A DNA stretch of 64,000 nucleotides from Halobacterium noricense (lineage in GTDB: Archaea > Halobacteriota > Halobacteria > Halobacteriales > Halobacteriaceae): positions 124,001 to 188,000 of the forward strand of contig NZ_CP089468.1 of the NCBI RefSeq assembly GCF_021233435.1, written 5' to 3'. The notes under the pieces are model-generated. The model did no database searches, had not been told where the DNA came from, and saw nothing but the letters and a program-made list of their open reading frames with translations. This document shows, in pieces, positions 45,310 to 51,383 of the stretch; the first letter of the stretch is position 1, and each line of letters begins with the position of its first letter. The position numbers and the translations under genes are program-made.

Positions 45310-46596
45310 ATGTCAAACGACGCAGAGGCGGCGCAGGGGTCCATCGAGGACCAGGGCCCCGTGGAGATTTCCCCGGAGCTCGACCGCCAAATCGAGAACA
45401 AGCGCGACGACCTCCTGGAGAAGTTCGAACTCCACGACGGCTTCGCGCCCGAGGTCATCGAGGAAGCCGAGGAGCGCGTCGAGGACGTGCAGGCCGAGAT
45501 TCAGGACGAGGTCGAGGAGCGCGCGGACATGCGGCCGCTGCCCACGTGGACGACCGACCCCGTGGACGCCCAGGACTTCGACGACGCCGTCAGCGTCCTC
45601 GAACGCGACGAGGAATACGTCGTCTGGGTACACATCGCCGACGTCACCCACTACGTCCACCCCGGCTCGAAGATGTGGGACGCCGCGATGGAGCGCGGGA
45701 ACACCATCTACCTCCCCGGCTACACGATTCACATGCTCCCGCCGGTGCTCGCGGAGACGGTCTGCTCGCTGGTCCCCAACGAGGACCGCCTCGCGCACAC
45801 CGTCGAGATGCACCTCGACAAGGAGGACCTCTCGTATCGCAACATCGAGATTTACAAGTCCGTCATCCACAGCGACGAGCGCCTGACGTACAAGGAGACG
45901 GAGGCGCGCCTCGACGACGAGGACGCCCCGCTGCACGACGAAATATCGCTCGTCTTCGAGCTCGCCGACCAGATGCACGAACAGCGCAAGGAGGAGGGGA
46001 GCCTCGTCCTGAACCCGCGTCGGGACCGCGCGCACACCATCATCGAGGAGTGCATGCTGAAGGCGAACAAGGCCGTCACGCACGAACTCATGTGGGACCG
46101 CGGCGTCGAAGCCGTCTACCGCGTCCACCCGCAGCCGTCGCCCGACGAGTGGGACGACGCGCTCCGCGAGATTCAGGAGCTCGACGGCGTCTCCATCCCC
46201 GGCGACTCCTGGGATGACCCCCGGAAGGCGGTCAACGCCACCCTCGAACAGGCGCCCGAGCGCCAACTCGGGAAGATCCAGTGGGCGGTGATGAAGGTGA
46301 TGCCCCGCGCCCGCTACATGAACGACCCGTTCGGCGGCCACCACGCGCTCAATTTCGAGATCTACGGCCACTTCACCAGCCCCATCCGCCGGATGAGCGA
46401 CCTCGTCAACCACTGGATCGTCTACCAGAACGACGTCCCCGAGACCCTCGTGGAACTGTGCGACCACGCCAGCGACCAGCAGAAAGCCGGCGAGTCCGCG
46501 GAACGCGAGTACCGCAACTTCCTCGAAGAGGTCGGCCTCGACCCCGACGCGGTGAACAACCGCGGCGTCGAGGTCGTCGACGAGGACGAGGCGTAG
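45310..46596 (+). CDS. rnr: RNase R-like RNB domain ribonuclease
   Basis: 428 aa. The RNB catalytic site is present: TTDPVDAQDFDDAV at residues 81-94 supplies the metal-binding aspartates. Further blocks are HIADVTHYVHPGS, RGNTIYLPGYTIHMLPP and GHFTSPIRRMSDLVNH. Compared with bacterial RNase R it lacks cold-shock and S1 domains, as is usual for haloarchaea, in which this enzyme stands in for the absent exosome. It is a 3'-5' exoribonuclease. An acidic helical N-terminus of 70 residues is present. Confidence 0.93.
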   Translation: MSNDAEAAQGSIEDQGPVEISPELDRQIENKRDDLLEKFELHDGFAPEVIEEAEERVEDVQAEIQDEVEERADMRPLPTWTTDPVDAQDFDDAVSVLERDEEYVVWVHIADVTHYVHPGSKMWDAAMERGNTIYLPGYTIHMLPPVLAETVCSLVPNEDRLAHTVEMHLDKEDLSYRNIEIYKSVIHSDERLTYKETEARLDDEDAPLHDEISLVFELADQMHEQRKEEGSLVLNPRRDRAHTIIEECMLKANKAVTHELMWDRGVEAVYRVHPQPSPDEWDDALREIQELDGVSIPGDSWDDPRKAVNATLEQAPERQLGKIQWAVMKVMPRARYMNDPFGGHHALNFEIYGHFTSPIRRMSDLVNHWIVYQNDVPETLVELCDHASDQQKAGESAEREYRNFLEEVGLDPDAVNNRGVEVVDEDEA

Positions 46597-46622: not shown

Positions 46623-47654
46623 TCACCACGTGCCCGCTGGCGGGTGCTCGTTCGACCGGAACGGCCCCGGGACGCCGTTCGTCCACAGCGACTTGCCCAG
46701 CCAGTAGCCCGCGTGCCAGCCGGCGCGGTCGTGGCCGTCGAGTGCGACGACGATGCGGACGTCCGTGTAGTACTCCGGTATCCCGTCGTCGTCGACGTCC
46801 GGGCCGTCCCAGTGCGCGCACGAGGAGTCGACGCCGAGGACGTCACAGTGAACGGACTCCTGGAGCGCCACGACGACGTCCGCGTTCTCGGGGTCGTCGA
46901 CCATCTCGAACTCCGGCGGGAGCGCGACGGTGCCGTCCGCGCCGCGCTCGTAGTACCCGACGGCTTCCCGGACTTGTTCGCGTGCCGCGTCCGTCGTTGT
47001 CACCTCCGAGACGACGGCGACCTGCAGCGTGTCCGACGCCCACGAGTACGTCCGCGCGGCCGCGTCGGCGACGTCGCCGTCCACGCGCGACGAGAGGTTC
47101 GGTGCCATCACGTCCCCCGGTCCCTCGCCGTGGTGGAAGCCGAGCACGTGGCCGAACTCGTGTTTCAGGATGGCGCGCATCGTCGCCGGCGTGTGCCCGG
47201 CGCGCACCTGTACGGTCACCTCGTCGGTCACGGTCGCGTTCGTCGGGACGACCGGCGCGCACCCGAGCGCGACGTCGTCCTCGTGGACGCTACACCGCTC
47301 GACTGCGGCTTCGACCGTCACGCGGACGTCCGCTGACTCGTTCCCCTCGACCAGTTCGAACTCCGGCCGGTAGCGGTTGCCCGCGTAGACCGCGTTCTCC
47401 CAGAACGTCAGCGTCTCCCGGACTGCCGGCCGGACGTCGCGGGTCGCGCCCGTGTGGTCGTCGACGACGACCGTAATCGGTCCCGGCCCCCACGGGTTCG
47501 TGGTCCGGTCGACGGTCCGGTCGGGCACCGTGAACGGCGCGTCTGCCGTCGGTTCCGTCGGGCCGTCCGGCCCGACGGCTGCCGGCTCCGCCGTCAGACA
47601 GCCCGCCGCGACGACGAGCGCGAGCACCGCGAGTACCGGCAGGACGCGCGTCAT
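46623..47654 (-). CDS. Matrixin-type metalloprotease lipoprotein
   Basis: 343 aa. Signal peptide with lipobox VAAGC (C19), so anchored outside the cell. The zinc motif HEFGHVLGFHH has ligands H165, H169 and H175 with catalytic E166, and M183 is the Met-turn (GDVM). The N-terminal half reads NPWGPGPITVVVDD and FWENAVYAGNRYRPEFELVEG, typical of archaeal matrixins. A C-terminal repeat of the fold (QVREAVGYYERG onward) lacks the zinc motif. Its substrate is unknown. Convergent with the RNase gene. Confidence 0.88.
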   Translation of the reverse strand: MTRVLPVLAVLALVVAAGCLTAEPAAVGPDGPTEPTADAPFTVPDRTVDRTTNPWGPGPITVVVDDHTGATRDVRPAVRETLTFWENAVYAGNRYRPEFELVEGNESADVRVTVEAAVERCSVHEDDVALGCAPVVPTNATVTDEVTVQVRAGHTPATMRAILKHEFGHVLGFHHGEGPGDVMAPNLSSRVDGDVADAAARTYSWASDTLQVAVVSEVTTTDAAREQVREAVGYYERGADGTVALPPEFEMVDDPENADVVVALQESVHCDVLGVDSSCAHWDGPDVDDDGIPEYYTDVRIVVALDGHDRAGWHAGYWLGKSLWTNGVPGPFRSNEHPPAGTW

Positions 47655-47733: not shown

Positions 47734-48798
47734 CTACGCGGGGACGGTCTGCTCGGCGATGGCCTCCGCGACGGCGCGCCCGAGCAGCGGCGGCACCGCG
47801 TTGCCCGTCATCTGGCGCTGTTTCGCGATGGGGCCCACGAACAGGTAGTCGTCGGGGAACGACTGCAGGCGCGCGCGCTCCCGGACGCTCAACCCCCTGT
47901 CGTCGGTCGGGTGCGCGAAGTGGTAGGTCGGCCGCGGGCCCGCCAGCAGCGTCGGCGCCGGCTCGCCGAATTCGAGGCGTCGCTTCTGGGACCAGCTGTC
48001 GTAGGGAATCTTCTCGCCGGGCGCGGTCTTCTCGATGCGGCCCGTGACCGTCTCCCCGTGGTTCGGCGCGCGGTGGTTGGTCAGCTCCGTCCCGTCGGCT
48101 CGCATCTCCGTCTGGTACTCGCCCTCGGGGTCGGCGGTGTAGGTCGTCTTCTCCTCGCCGGGGGCCAGCGACGGCAGGTCGCCGAACGCGTTCTGGACCG
48201 TCCGCGGCGGCCGGCGGTCCGCGAACAGCGTCTGCTGGTCTCTGGACTCCCGGAACGCCGCCTCCGGGAACTCGAACGCCTCGCCAGTCTTGTGGCCGAC
48301 GAAGAACGCCCGCCGGCGGCTCTGGGGCACCCCGTAGTCGGCCGCGTTCAGGACCGTCCACTCGGTGTCGTAGCCGATTTCCGCGAACTGGTCGAGCAGG
48401 TACTCCAGGACCTGGCCGTCCTCCATCGTGGTGATGCGGGGGACGTTCTCCATCACGAACCAGTCCGGGTCGATTTCGTACACCGACTTGACGAAGTTGG
48501 TGACGAGGAAGTTCCGCTCGTCCGCGGGGTTCGTCTTCGCGCCGGCCAGACTGAACCCCTGACAGGGCGGCCCCCCGATGACGCCGTCGAGGTCGCCGGG
48601 GTCGTAGCCGAGTTCGGCCAGAATCGCCTCGCCCGTGACCTTGCTCAGGTCGGCCTCGACGAACTGCGCGTCGTGGTTGTGCTCGAAGGTCTCCGCGAAC
48701 GCGTCCTCGTGGTCCACGCCGCCCACGACGTCGTAGCCCGCCTGGTCGAACCCCGCCGAGAGCCCGCCCGCGCCACAGAAGAGGTCCAGAACGGCCAT
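47734..48798 (-). CDS. DNA (cytosine-5-)-methyltransferase
   Basis: 354 aa from ATG 48798, preceded by GGGGAG; a GTG at 48813 is an alternative. Motif I DLFCGAGGLSAGF (4-16), motif IV GGPPCQGFS with catalytic C79, motif VI ENVPR (117-121), motif VIII QSRRRAFFVG and motif X TGNAVPPLLGRAVAEAI are complete, so it should be active. The target-recognition region between VIII and IX holds about 120 residues; the specificity cannot be read. It follows the C2H2 zinc finger gene by four bases and is divergent from the HTH and nuclease-like genes. Confidence 0.93.
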   Translation of the reverse strand: MAVLDLFCGAGGLSAGFDQAGYDVVGGVDHEDAFAETFEHNHDAQFVEADLSKVTGEAILAELGYDPGDLDGVIGGPPCQGFSLAGAKTNPADERNFLVTNFVKSVYEIDPDWFVMENVPRITTMEDGQVLEYLLDQFAEIGYDTEWTVLNAADYGVPQSRRRAFFVGHKTGEAFEFPEAAFRESRDQQTLFADRRPPRTVQNAFGDLPSLAPGEEKTTYTADPEGEYQTEMRADGTELTNHRAPNHGETVTGRIEKTAPGEKIPYDSWSQKRRLEFGEPAPTLLAGPRPTYHFAHPTDDRGLSVRERARLQSFPDDYLFVGPIAKQRQMTGNAVPPLLGRAVAEAIAEQTVPA

Positions 48799-48802
48799 CC
48801 GC

Positions 48803-48967
48803 TCACTCCCCACTGTCGTGTTGTTGGCCGCGGTGGATGTTCAGCCCCCGCTTCGAGTCGAACTCCCGCCCGCAGTCCGCACACGCGAACGACTCGTCCT
48901 CGTCGGCGTCGTCGCCCGCAAACGGATACCTCGAAATCACCTCGTCAGAATCACGCTTCTCGGCCAT
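48803..48967 (-). CDS. C2H2 zinc finger microprotein
   Basis: 54 aa from ATG 48967. A single classical C2H2 finger: C29, C32 (FACADCGREF) and H45, H50 (NIHRGQQH). The first 25 residues are charged (MAEKRDSDEVISRYPFAGDD). It lies four bases before the methyltransferase and is surely cotranscribed with it. It could bind DNA and regulate or guide the modification, but this is inference. Confidence 0.78.
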   Translation of the reverse strand: MAEKRDSDEVISRYPFAGDDADEDESFACADCGREFDSKRGLNIHRGQQHDSGE

Positions 48968-49060
48968 CTTGGCTGGGAGTTGTGCGCCACGGTTATTAGC
49001 TTTTGTGAGGTAGTCCGTCCCTCTCTCGTGTGTAATTCGTGTCCACTCTGACGCTAACGC

Positions 49061-49067
49061 TTATCTA
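49061..49067 (+). promoter_or_regulatory. TATA box of the wHTH-nuclease operon
   Basis: TTATCTA centred about 30 bases before ATG 49095 in the 127-base divergent region. It favours 49095 over the in-frame ATG at 49074. Confidence 0.45.
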
Positions 49068-49094
49068 TCCCGTGTGCATTCGTTCGTGCATACG

Positions 49095-49388
49095 ATGCCC
49101 GACGAGGCCGAACGCGATGGCCTGTCCGACGAGGAGTTAGACCGGTACGGCTACGTCTCCAGCAGCCAGCGACGCGTCGCCGTCGTCACCACCCTGAAGG
49201 ACAGCCCGCGGACACCGAAGCAGATATCAGAGCACACCGACATTCGACTGAACCACGTGAGCAACGTGCTAGCAGAACTCGCCGACGAAGACGTCGTGAC
49301 GTGCGTGAACCCCGACCGGAAGCGCGGCCGGGTGTACCGACTGACCGAGCTGGGCGACACCGTCTCCGCGGAGGTGGCCTCGCGGTGA
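49095..49388 (+). CDS. Winged helix-turn-helix regulator
   Basis: 97 aa from ATG 49095. The pattern SSSQRRVAVVTTLKDSPRTPKQISEHTDIRLNHVSNVLAEL, in three helices, followed by a wing VVTCVNPDRKRGRVYRLTELG is an ArsR-like winged helix common in haloarchaea. The stop overlaps the GTG of the next gene (GTGA). Being first in an operon with nuclease-like genes and opposite a methyltransferase, it may act as a controller of the locus. Confidence 0.85.
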   Translation: MPDEAERDGLSDEELDRYGYVSSSQRRVAVVTTLKDSPRTPKQISEHTDIRLNHVSNVLAELADEDVVTCVNPDRKRGRVYRLTELGDTVSAEVASR

Positions 49389-50368
49389 GCGACTACACGA
49401 TTGTCCACGACGCGATTCAGGAGGCGGACTGGTTCCAGCAGCTCGCCGACGAGCTCGCGGGCGCGGCCATCTCCCGGCTGGACGACGACGCCCCCGAAGC
49501 AGTCCTGGAGATTGCCAGCTACGACCGGCCGGACATCATCCTGCTCGACGGCGACGAGCCCGTGCTCGTCGTCGAGAAAACCGGCCACGTCCCGACCGGG
49601 AAGAACCCGATGCAGCGGGTCGCGCGGCTGGTGAAAGCCGCCGAACTCGGCGTCCCCGGCGTCTTCTTCGTCCCGTACGCCGCGAAGAAACACGGCGAGA
49701 ACGCCAGCAAGACGAACCTCAACTACCGCGCGATTCAGGCGCTGCGCCGCATCGAGGCGGTCAACGACACGCCGATGCTGATTCCGCCGTGGCCGACCGA
49801 CGACGACTACGAGCTGGTCCACGACGGCTCCGAGGACGAACTCATCGGCCGCTTCGTGACGCAGTTCCTGCGCAACGGCTGCGACGCGGACGTCCCCGCG
49901 GCCGAGGAAACCCGGGAACAGTCCGAGCGTGGCGCCGAACGCATCCTCTCGGAGTACGCCCCCTACGAGCAGCCGCCGAACTCCGTCGCCATCGAGCGGA
50001 CGGACGACGTGGTCGCCCGGGACGACGGCCTGCCCGGTGGGTCGTTCCGGACGGACCGCGCCGAGACCGTGGTCTGTGACTTCGGCTTCCGGACGCGACG
50101 CACGGACCCGTACATCGGCGCGCAGTTCGCCTACGACTACCTCTACTGCCGCACGGGCCCGTCCGTCAGTGACCGCGACCGGAACCTCGTGCTCCACATG
50201 CCGAAGCTCGACCGCGAGACGTGGTTCGACTACCATCCCTACAAGCCGGGCAACAAGACCGCGCTGTGGTACGCCTGCGCGGACGCCCTCGTCCTCTCGG
50301 ACGACGCGCTGACTGACTTCGACCAGTTCCGCCAGCGCGACGAAGGCCGCCTCGACCAGTACCGATGA
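49385..50368 (+). CDS. Putative PD-(D/E)XK-like nuclease, unknown family
   Basis: 327 aa, GTG start overlapping the preceding TGA. Residues 46-66 (YDRPDIILLDGDEPVLVVEK) look like the catalytic core of a PD-(D/E)XK nuclease, with D50 and E64, but K65 is adjacent to the Glu rather than two residues on; Q77-R78 follow in the expected helix. A second half (DPYIGAQFAYDYLYCRTGPS, then NLVLHMPKLDRETWFDYHPYKPGNK) is unassigned. I cannot place it in a named family. The four-base overlaps on both sides tie it to the HTH and the 173-aa nuclease-like gene. Confidence 0.7.
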   Translation: MSDYTIVHDAIQEADWFQQLADELAGAAISRLDDDAPEAVLEIASYDRPDIILLDGDEPVLVVEKTGHVPTGKNPMQRVARLVKAAELGVPGVFFVPYAAKKHGENASKTNLNYRAIQALRRIEAVNDTPMLIPPWPTDDDYELVHDGSEDELIGRFVTQFLRNGCDADVPAAEETREQSERGAERILSEYAPYEQPPNSVAIERTDDVVARDDGLPGGSFRTDRAETVVCDFGFRTRRTDPYIGAQFAYDYLYCRTGPSVSDRDRNLVLHMPKLDRETWFDYHPYKPGNKTALWYACADALVLSDDALTDFDQFRQRDEGRLDQYR

Positions 50369-50886
50369 CCGCCGAAGCGGAGGTGTACGTCTGGACCAAG
50401 CGCCTGTTCCGCGCGCGGGACTGGACCATCCTCGCCAGCGACCCGCCACGCGGGACCGACGTGCCACGCCTCGAAATCAAGGAACCCGGCGGCACGCAGA
50501 GCCGCACGAAGAACAAGAACGCCATCATCAACGACCTCGTCTACTGCAAGGACGGCACGCTTGCGCTCGTCGAGTGCAAGGACAGCGCCACCAAGACGTC
50601 GATGGACGTCGAGAAACTCGACCGGCTCCGCGAGGAGCGCGCGTGGCGCGACTCCCTCGTCACGGCGATGTCGGAACGCTCCCTGTTCGCCCGCGACGGC
50701 GCACCGAGTCCGAGCGCGGTCCGAAGCGGGGCGGCGTTGGTCCCCGTGCTCGCGTACCCCGGCGGCCCACAGCCAGGACTCTCCGAGTTCGTCCAATTGA
50801 CCTTCGACCAGGGCGACGAAACCGTCACGGTCGGAAGCGACCTTCCCGAGCGCGCCAGCGAACTGTTCGGCGCGCTCTCGGTCTGA
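50365..50886 (+). CDS. Small PD-(D/E)XK nuclease-like protein
   Basis: 173 aa from ATG 50365 overlapping the previous stop (ATGA). The core KNAIINDLVYCKDGTLALVECKDS contains D57, then E70-C-K72, a canonical D...ExK spacing, followed by a helix DVEKLDRLREER. The C-terminal third has a further beta strand and helix. No known restriction family was recognised. As the last gene of the operon it may form a complex with the 327-aa protein. Confidence 0.75.
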   Translation: MTAEAEVYVWTKRLFRARDWTILASDPPRGTDVPRLEIKEPGGTQSRTKNKNAIINDLVYCKDGTLALVECKDSATKTSMDVEKLDRLREERAWRDSLVTAMSERSLFARDGAPSPSAVRSGAALVPVLAYPGGPQPGLSEFVQLTFDQGDETVTVGSDLPERASELFGALSV

Positions 50887-51311
50887 ATCGCACGCGGCCA
50901 CTGGCGTCCGACCTCCGATTTCGACGCGAAGCGACAGACGCGTCGCTTCGCGGTCGAGTTCACAGACGGAGACTCGCTGGGGTTCTCGCGAGCGCCGAAA
51001 GAACGAATTCTTTCGAGCCCGCGTTCGCTTCGCTCACGCGGACGAAGCGAGCGAGAAGTCAGGGAGGAAACGAGACGAACGGAGTGAGTCGAGTGGACTC
51101 GCTGGAACTGAGCGAAACCAACAGTTTCTCGAAGGTCGGCAGACTCGCGTCGCGAATCTGCCAGGATTTGAACCCAGAGCCAGACGTTCCTGCTCGCTGG
51201 CGCTGCGCGGGCTGCGACTGGCAGGGCTTCAAATCCCAGCTTCGTCAACATTCACGCAGTGCCACCGACGAGCGACATAGACGTCGCTCGTCGATGGCGT
51301 ATTGAGAGAAG
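50887..51311. other. Gene-free stretch with tRNA-Ala 3'-end repeats
   Basis: 425 bases between the nuclease operon and tRNA-Ala. The tRNA 3' sequence recurs: AGTGGACTCGCTGG at 51092-51105 is identical to 51310-51323 (the tRNA end), and GACTCGCTGGG at 50971-50981 is a shorter copy. A T-arm-like word GGATTTGAACCCAG also lies at 51163-51176. Also present is a short open stretch encoding RCAGCDWQGFKSQLRQHS, perhaps a broken zinc finger. Low-GC inverted repeats are lacking. The repeats look like attachment-site relics. Confidence 0.6.
51092..51105. repeat. attR-like copy of the tRNA-Ala 3' end
   Basis: Fourteen bases identical to 51310-51323, covering the acceptor 3' strand and part of the T-arm, 218 bases away from the tRNA. 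This is the usual place and length for an integrase attachment repeat. Confidence 0.5.
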
Positions 51312-51383
51312 TGGACTCGCTGGGATTTGAACCCAGGGCCTCTTCCTTGCGAAGGAAGCGATCTACCACTGATCTACGAGCCC
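51312..51383 (-). tRNA. tRNA-Ala (CGC)
   Basis: A 72-base cloverleaf on the minus strand. Acceptor GGGCTCG pairs with CGAGTCC and contains the G3-U70 wobble that identifies alanine tRNA. The anticodon stem CTTCC/GGAAG encloses TTCGCAA, anticodon CGC at 51351-51349. The T-loop is GTTCAAATC; A73 ends it and no CCA is encoded. There is no intron. Confidence 0.95.

What the first reader, a model, noticed from the sequence alone, without database searches (positions are those of the whole stretch)
47734..50886. Candidate restriction/defence locus: C5 methyltransferase and zinc finger opposite an HTH and two nuclease-like genes
Five small genes form two back-to-back operons: a C2H2 microprotein and a complete C5 methyltransferase on the minus strand, and a wHTH, a 327-aa protein and a 173-aa protein coupled by four-base overlaps on the plus strand. 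Both larger plus-strand proteins have PD-(D/E)XK-like cores (D50/E64-K65; D57/E70-K72). The block ends next to tRNA-Ala. Such a composition suggests a restriction-modification or modification-linked defence system whose nuclease families I cannot name.
Basis: partly seen in the sequence, partly recalled or inferred. Interest (0 to 1): 0.75.

Follow-up and report, generated by a model that had tools for sequence, protein, structure and literature searches.

The report
Split BsmI-like restriction-modification cassette, haloarchaeal
The five genes form a mobile defence cassette in a salt-loving archaeon: one enzyme marks the cell's own DNA with methyl groups and a probable two-part molecular scissors, built like the laboratory enzyme BsmI cut into two proteins, cleaves unmarked foreign DNA.

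Summary
Window 47734-50886 carries five genes in two divergent units: C5 methyltransferase M (359 aa) with an overlapping C2H2 microprotein on the minus strand; a winged-helix protein, R1 (327 aa) and R2 (173 aa), joined by 4-base overlaps, on the plus strand. The same five genes in the same order occur in three other haloarchaea. R1-R2 with an adjacent methyltransferase recurs across Bacteria and Archaea: 46 R1 loci, 43 with R2, 42 with a C5 methyltransferase, one with two N4/N6 methyltransferases instead. The predicted R1 structure matches residues 1-426 of the restriction enzyme BsmI (Z 16.2) and R2 matches residues 467-660 of the same chain (Z 10.6), so the pair looks like a BsmI-type endonuclease in two chains. 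This is a Type II restriction-modification system, probably a Type IIT heterodimer like BtsI/BsrDI in architecture. Not shown: cleavage, the recognition sequence, how a single C5 methyltransferase protects a possibly asymmetric site, and what the zinc finger does. The cassette sits between a matrixin gene and tRNA-Ala; a relative keeps a decayed fragment of M there, recording loss.

The parts
47734..48813 (-). M: C5-cytosine DNA methyltransferase, 359 aa, complete
   Evidence: PF00145 E=2e-69; NCBIfam dcm superfamily 5e-59; PADLOC MTase_II 6e-103; PC83-84, ENV122-124 and QxRxR motifs invariant among relatives
48803..48967 (-). C2H2 zinc-finger microprotein, 54 aa, overlaps M by 11 bp
   Evidence: zf-C2H2 E=9e-4, below gathering score; close full-length homologues only in the four five-gene cassettes; dN/dS 0.25-0.32
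48968..49094 (.). Divergent promoter region, GC 0.52 against 0.677 for the window; GTGTGTA at 49028 and GTGTGCA at 49072; two such repeats in each of the four cassettes, a possible operator
   Evidence: operator role is inference
49095..49388 (+). Winged-helix regulator (likely start ATG 49095; GTG 49074 also possible), candidate controller
   Evidence: PF25213 HVO_A0261_N E=2e-9; conserved in four cassettes
49385..50368 (+). R1: large endonuclease subunit, 327 aa; P49 D50 ... E64-x-T66, N74, Q77 R78; counterpart of BsmI residues 1-426
   Evidence: invariant columns; PADLOC PDLC03392 'Type II nicking endonuclease' 7.6e-5, 44 of 46 homologues; VIA Z 16.2, 286 aligned
50365..50886 (+). R2: small endonuclease subunit, 173 aa; D57/E70-x-K72; counterpart of BsmI residues 467-660
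   Evidence: invariant columns; Hjc 32/46 and AHJR-like 8/46 homologues at E<=0.1; VIA Z 10.6, 146 aligned

Best explanation
A complete, horizontally moving Type II restriction-modification cassette. M puts 5-methylcytosine on the host's recognition sites. R1 and R2 together form the endonuclease, a two-chain version of BsmI: R1 recognises the site and cuts one strand with its PD...E-x-T site; R2, a Hjc/AHJR-like PD-(D/E)XK nuclease without an evident recognition domain of its own, docks on R1 and cuts the other strand. The winged-helix protein, first gene of the R operon, most likely acts as the controller that delays R1/R2 until M has protected the genome, binding the repeated GTGTGTA boxes in the divergent promoter; the C2H2 protein, overlapping M, is a second regulator or an M accessory. 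Shown computationally: gene content, conserved linkage, co-inheritance, active-site conservation, BsmI fold match of both chains. Inferred: heterodimer formation, one strand per subunit, asymmetric site, regulation.
For: Fold: R1 to BsmI 9f38 Foldseek E 3.5e-7, VIA Z 16.2 over 286 residues, chain 1-426, next non-BsmI row Z 6.9; R2 to BsmI 467-660 Z 10.6, next SdaI Z 8.1: two adjacent genes match two adjacent, non-overlapping parts of one enzyme, in order. Linkage: R1 found by sequence in 46 public genome loci; R2 beside it in 43 and C5 M in 42, mostly with overlapping genes; one locus (L044, Woesearchaeota) has two N4/N6 methyltransferases instead. Distance matrices correlate: R1-R2 r=0.89, R1-M 0.72, R2-M 0.71, 0 of 2000 permutations as high. 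Catalytic residues: R1 PD-x13-E-x-[ST] in 41/46 loci, the other five mostly truncated or split ORFs; R2 D57, E70, K72 invariant. BtsIB's reported P57, D58, E72 has the same D-to-E spacing of 14, and BtsIB/BtsIA work out at about 38 and 19 kDa from the concentrations given (PMC2909958). A PADLOC REase profile hits in 391 haloarchaeal genomes only R1 genes of these loci, 4 genomes, and 0 of 14 controls. Bacterial relatives carry XRE-type HTH genes upstream of M and sometimes Vsr, usual R-M companions. Patchy spread: 6 of 391 haloarchaeal genomes have R1 at 43% identity or more; empty and scarred sites.
Against: No activity, methylome or complex was tested. No sequence search links R1 to BsmI; the relation rests on a predicted structure, pLDDT 79, with the C-terminal 18 residues poorly modelled. 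Type IIT systems generally have two methyltransferases, one per strand (PMC4081073); this locus has one. R1 lacks the usual lysine of PD-(D/E)XK. One locus (L043) has R1-R2 with no methyltransferase recognised within 5 kb.
Confidence: 0.83

Rival explanations
1. R1 and R2 assemble as a symmetric alpha2-beta2 heterotetramer on a palindromic site, as BslI does, so that a single C5 methyltransferase protects both strands.
For: Only one methyltransferase in the window cassette and in most bacterial loci; the review notes BslI is such a heterotetramer (PMC4081073).
Against: Both chains match BsmI, which has both active sites in one polypeptide; several relatives have two methyltransferases (L032, L044, L045, L072). 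BslI itself was not compared.
Confidence: 0.2
2. R1-R2 is a nicking or repair complex serving the methyltransferase (for example correcting T:G mismatches from 5mC deamination) rather than a restriction enzyme.
For: R1's best library hit is named a nicking endonuclease; R2 resembles Hjc; relatives carry Vsr or HhH-GPD glycosylase genes or domains.
Against: Where Vsr or glycosylase occurs it is present in addition to R1-R2; L044 pairs R1-R2 with N4/N6 methyltransferases, where no 5mC repair is needed; both R1 and R2 active sites are preserved; BsmI makes double-strand cuts.
Confidence: 0.07
3. The cassette is a decaying, inactive remnant; only M is kept as an orphan methyltransferase.
For: Close relatives show decay: M frameshifted and a TnpB gene between R1 and R2 in L027; a 46-residue M relic in G235.
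Against: In the window all five ORFs are intact and the genes are under purifying selection, dN/dS 0.13-0.32.
Confidence: 0.05

Closest known systems
BsmI (PDB 9f38, 9ez5, 9ezd, 9ez7)
   Same: Fold of R1 (BsmI 1-426) and R2 (BsmI 467-660), order of domains; PDB titles describe top- and bottom-nicking mutants, i.e. two distinct nuclease sites
   Different: BsmI is one chain of about 676 residues; here two separate chains; only about 12-15% identity; companion methyltransferase is C5 type here
BtsI / BsrDI (Type IIT heterodimers, Nb.BtsI, Nb.BsrDI)
   Same: Large recognition-plus-nuclease subunit and small nuclease subunit of about the same sizes (BtsI); P-D-x13-E spacing identical in BtsIB (PMC2909958)
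   Different: BtsI has two methyltransferases, one per strand; sequence homology could not be tested (sequences not held)
R.BspD6I / Nt.BspD6I
   Same: Large plus small subunit; R2 aligns to the small subunit 2p14, Z 5.6
   Different: Large subunit 604 aa; weak match, not above common PD-(D/E)XK background
PADLOC PDLC03392, Type II nicking endonuclease
   Same: Matches the R1 nuclease domain, residues 37-136, and 44 of 46 R1 homologues
   Different: Only about 100 of 488 profile positions match; the recognition part is not covered

Membership tests
Type II restriction-modification system | DNA methyltransferase gene linked to endonuclease gene(s) | tested here: met
   M beside R1-R2 in the window and C5 M in 42 of 46 public R1 loci
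Type II restriction-modification system | Endonuclease cleaves unmodified recognition sites; methylation blocks it | not testable with these tools
   Needs purified enzyme and methylome
Type II restriction-modification system | No separate specificity subunit or ATP-dependent translocase | tested here: met
   No such gene in the cassette or in the conserved gene set
Type IIT (BtsI/BsrDI/BsmI-like) | Two different catalytic sites | tested here: met
   Distinct conserved sites in R1 (PD-x13-E-x-[ST]) and R2 (D-x12-E-x-K); catalysis itself not assayed
Type IIT (BtsI/BsrDI/BsmI-like) | Structural relation of both subunits to a known enzyme of this kind | tested here: met
   BsmI Z 16.2 and Z 10.6, from predicted models
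Type IIT (BtsI/BsrDI/BsmI-like) | Asymmetric recognition sequence | not testable with these tools
   No recognition sequence known
Type IIT (BtsI/BsrDI/BsmI-like) | Two methyltransferases (or a fused pair), one per strand; 'in general', PMC4081073 | tested here: inconclusive
   One C5 M in the window cassette; the genome's only other C5 M found is at C1:2637466-2638473, far from the window; N4/N6 methyltransferases elsewhere not surveyed; two in L032, L044, L045, L072
BslI-like heterotetramer | alpha2-beta2 assembly on a palindrome | not testable with these tools
   Complex prediction not available
C-protein controlled R-M | Controller HTH gene with operator between M and R | tested here: inconclusive
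   wHTH heads the R operon; GTGTGTA-like pairs in all four promoters; binding not tested; the family differs from the XRE-type HTH genes of bacterial relatives

The most novel reading that the evidence does not exclude
A widespread, unnamed family of two-chain BsmI-type endonucleases that works with a single C5 methyltransferase, so that either one-strand methylation suffices for protection or the site is palindromic and the BsmI fold has been turned to symmetric assembly; in haloarchaea it is run by a winged-helix plus C2H2 zinc-finger pair instead of a bacterial C protein.
Probability: 0.3. Interest if true: 0.6.

Novelty: new variant of a known kind. Interest (0 to 1): 0.42.

Why it matters
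It explains by a solved structure two protein families that have no Pfam or NCBIfam model (R1 none at all, R2 only weak Hjc/AHJR-like hits) and that occur from haloarchaea to Bacteroidota and Neisseria. It offers a source of new salt-tolerant restriction and natural nicking enzymes, a case of one enzyme fold found as one chain (BsmI) or two, and a testable puzzle of how one C5 methyltransferase protects the target. The archaeal relatives with a DNA glycosylase joined to the methyltransferase, and the bacterial ones with Vsr, suggest that repair of deaminated 5mC is packaged with the system.

Tried and rejected
Sequence searches of R1 against Pfam, NCBIfam and PHROGs gave nothing; the PDB by sequence gave nothing useful for R1 and only weak Hjc matches for R2. 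Phage, viral-contig and plasmid collections hold no R1 relative by these searches, so I do not call it a phage or plasmid gene. The weak Glyco_transf_8 and Rho GTPase hits were set aside as chance. Modification-dependent (Type IV) cleavage was rejected because an active M in the same cassette would make it suicidal. tRNA-targeted integration was considered because of the tRNA-Ala neighbour; the tRNA is intact in relatives without the cassette, but I found no att duplication and did not pursue it. BtsI, BsrDI and BsmI sequences could not be fetched, so sequence homology to them is untested. The whole genome was not available as a file, so the recognition motif was not sought by k-mer avoidance. 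A literature search for HhH-GPD joined to cytosine methyltransferases returned nothing.

Full report
OBSERVATION. The window lies in a 3.32-Mb haloarchaeal genome of a genus that includes Halobacterium sp. CBA1126 (L040, the same contig as L027). The five genes are present as described: M 47734-48813 (-), a 54-residue C2H2 protein 48803-48967 (-), then wHTH, R1 49385-50368 and R2 50365-50886 (+) with 4-base overlaps. tRNA-Ala(CGC) is at 51311-51383. The genes are real: in unsaturated comparisons all five show dN/dS of 0.13-0.32 between cassettes.

CONSERVED CASSETTE. Searching 391 Halobacteria genomes, R1 at 43% identity or more occurs in six (G000, G353, G372, G220, G100, G040) and R2 in the same six; more distant R1 relatives occur in a few others. 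In G353, G372 and G220 all five genes keep the same order and divergent layout (L027, L028, L029). In G100 and G040 M, R1 and R2 are co-directional without the zinc finger and wHTH. M at 64% identity or more occurs only in the four five-gene genomes; close full-length zinc-finger homologues likewise.

WIDER FAMILY. A profile-guided scan of 84,980 species genomes gave 46 R1 loci in Bacteroidota, Bacillota, Neisseria, Campylobacterota, methanogens, Woesearchaeota and others. R2 is adjacent in 43, a C5 methyltransferase in 42, typically M-R1-R2 with overlapping genes. Several exceptions are contig ends or broken genes. L044 (Woesearchaeota) has R1-R2 beside two N6_N4_Mtase proteins (E 1e-19, 9e-49), which suggests that the constant part is the R1-R2 pair and that the modifying enzyme can change class. 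R1 and R2 distances correlate at r=0.89, each with M at about 0.71-0.72, in line with R1-R2 being the tighter unit.

WHAT R1 AND R2 ARE. R1 has no Pfam or NCBIfam match; its only library hit worth noting is PADLOC PDLC03392, Type II nicking endonuclease (7.6e-5, residues 37-136), shared by 44 of 46 homologues. Among 391 haloarchaeal genomes that profile finds only R1 genes of these loci. R2 homologues match Hjc (32/46) and AHJR-like REase (8/46) weakly. Invariant columns include P49, D50, E64, N74, Q77, R78, R81 in R1 and D57, E70, K72 in R2. AlphaFold models from 46-row alignments have pLDDT 79 / pTM 0.83 (R1) and 93.5 / 0.89 (R2). Against the PDB, R1 hits only the four BsmI entries below E 0.001; VIA-align gives Z 16.2, 286 residues, rmsd 4.5 A, BsmI 1-426. 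R2's best match is the remainder of the same chain, 467-660, Z 10.6, 146 residues, rmsd 3.5 A. Two neighbouring genes thus correspond to consecutive parts of one restriction enzyme. [quoted passage not shown] BtsIB has its motif at P57, D58, E72, the same spacing as P49, D50, E64 (PMC2909958).

MECHANISM. Shown: linkage, predicted fold, conserved active sites, purifying selection. Inferred: R1 recognises and cuts one strand, R2 docks and cuts the other; M protects; wHTH controls the R operon. The low-GC divergent promoter (0.52 against 0.677) holds two GTGTGTA-like boxes in each of the four cassettes, a candidate operator only. Several bacterial relatives have XRE-type HTH genes immediately upstream of M, so a regulator in this place is usual although the family differs. 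One-domain zinc-finger micro-proteins are common in Haloferax and several matter for stress adaptation, biofilm and swarming (PMC6562870, title and abstract listed); this one is tied to the cassette, with unknown role.

OPEN POINT. Type IIT systems generally have two methyltransferases; the window has one. The only other C5 methyltransferase found in the genome is at C1:2637466-2638473. Either M acts on both strands of a palindromic site, or one-strand methylation suffices, or an unlinked enzyme helps. Relatives with two methyltransferases exist (L032, L044, L045, L072).

HISTORY. In same-genus genomes without the cassette the matrixin gene (46623-47654 in the window) lies next to tRNA-Ala; in L089 the flanks corresponding to 47696 and 51092 are about 80 bp apart. 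In G235 (L087) a 46-residue relic of the M C-terminus, 83% identical, remains, so the cassette was probably once there and was lost. In G353 (L027) M is split by a frameshift and a TnpB-type gene sits between R1 and R2. This agrees with the patchy, transfer-and-loss pattern reported for haloarchaeal R-M genes (PMC6471742).

VERDICT. It is a new variant of a known kind, of moderate interest.

Noticed in passing
L030:10958-12796, L031:10810-12666, L032:7208-9040, L033:10441-12468: In four haloarchaeal relatives the C5 methyltransferase carries a C-terminal HhH-GPD glycosylase domain (PF00730 E 9e-6 and 4e-7 in the two tested; EndIII 4Fe-2S motif in L030), probably for repair of deaminated 5mC.
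   Followed up: partly
L060:1695-2366: A separate 223-aa HhH-GPD glycosylase gene (PF00730 3.6e-10) lies between M and R1. By eye it has Tyr where EndoIII has its catalytic Lys, as I recall for the T:G glycosylase MIG (recall, not tested).
   Followed up: partly
L057:2788-3201 and L065:6533-7162: Vsr mismatch endonuclease genes (PF03852 6e-32, 1e-28) next to M-R1-R2 in two bacteria.
   Followed up: partly
L072:3678-6119: M and an R1 copy are fused into one 813-aa ORF, followed by a second R1 and R2: a natural methyltransferase-endonuclease fusion.
   Followed up: no
L034:9458-10384 and L035:14967-15893: Short R1-like proteins (E-T-T site) with no C5 methyltransferase or R2 detected nearby; L035 lies close to a tyrosine-recombinase-like gene (by eye). 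Function unclear.
   Followed up: no
L043:4992-6406: R1-R2 pair in a Bacillota MAG without any methyltransferase recognised within 5 kb.
   Followed up: no
window 51100-51310: tRNA-like fragments and short repeats beside tRNA-Ala, possible traces of past integration.
   Followed up: no
L033:13028-14359: An RNB-domain-like gene similar to window 45310-46596 also lies near the M-R1 locus of G088; coincidence or shared insertion spot.
   Followed up: no
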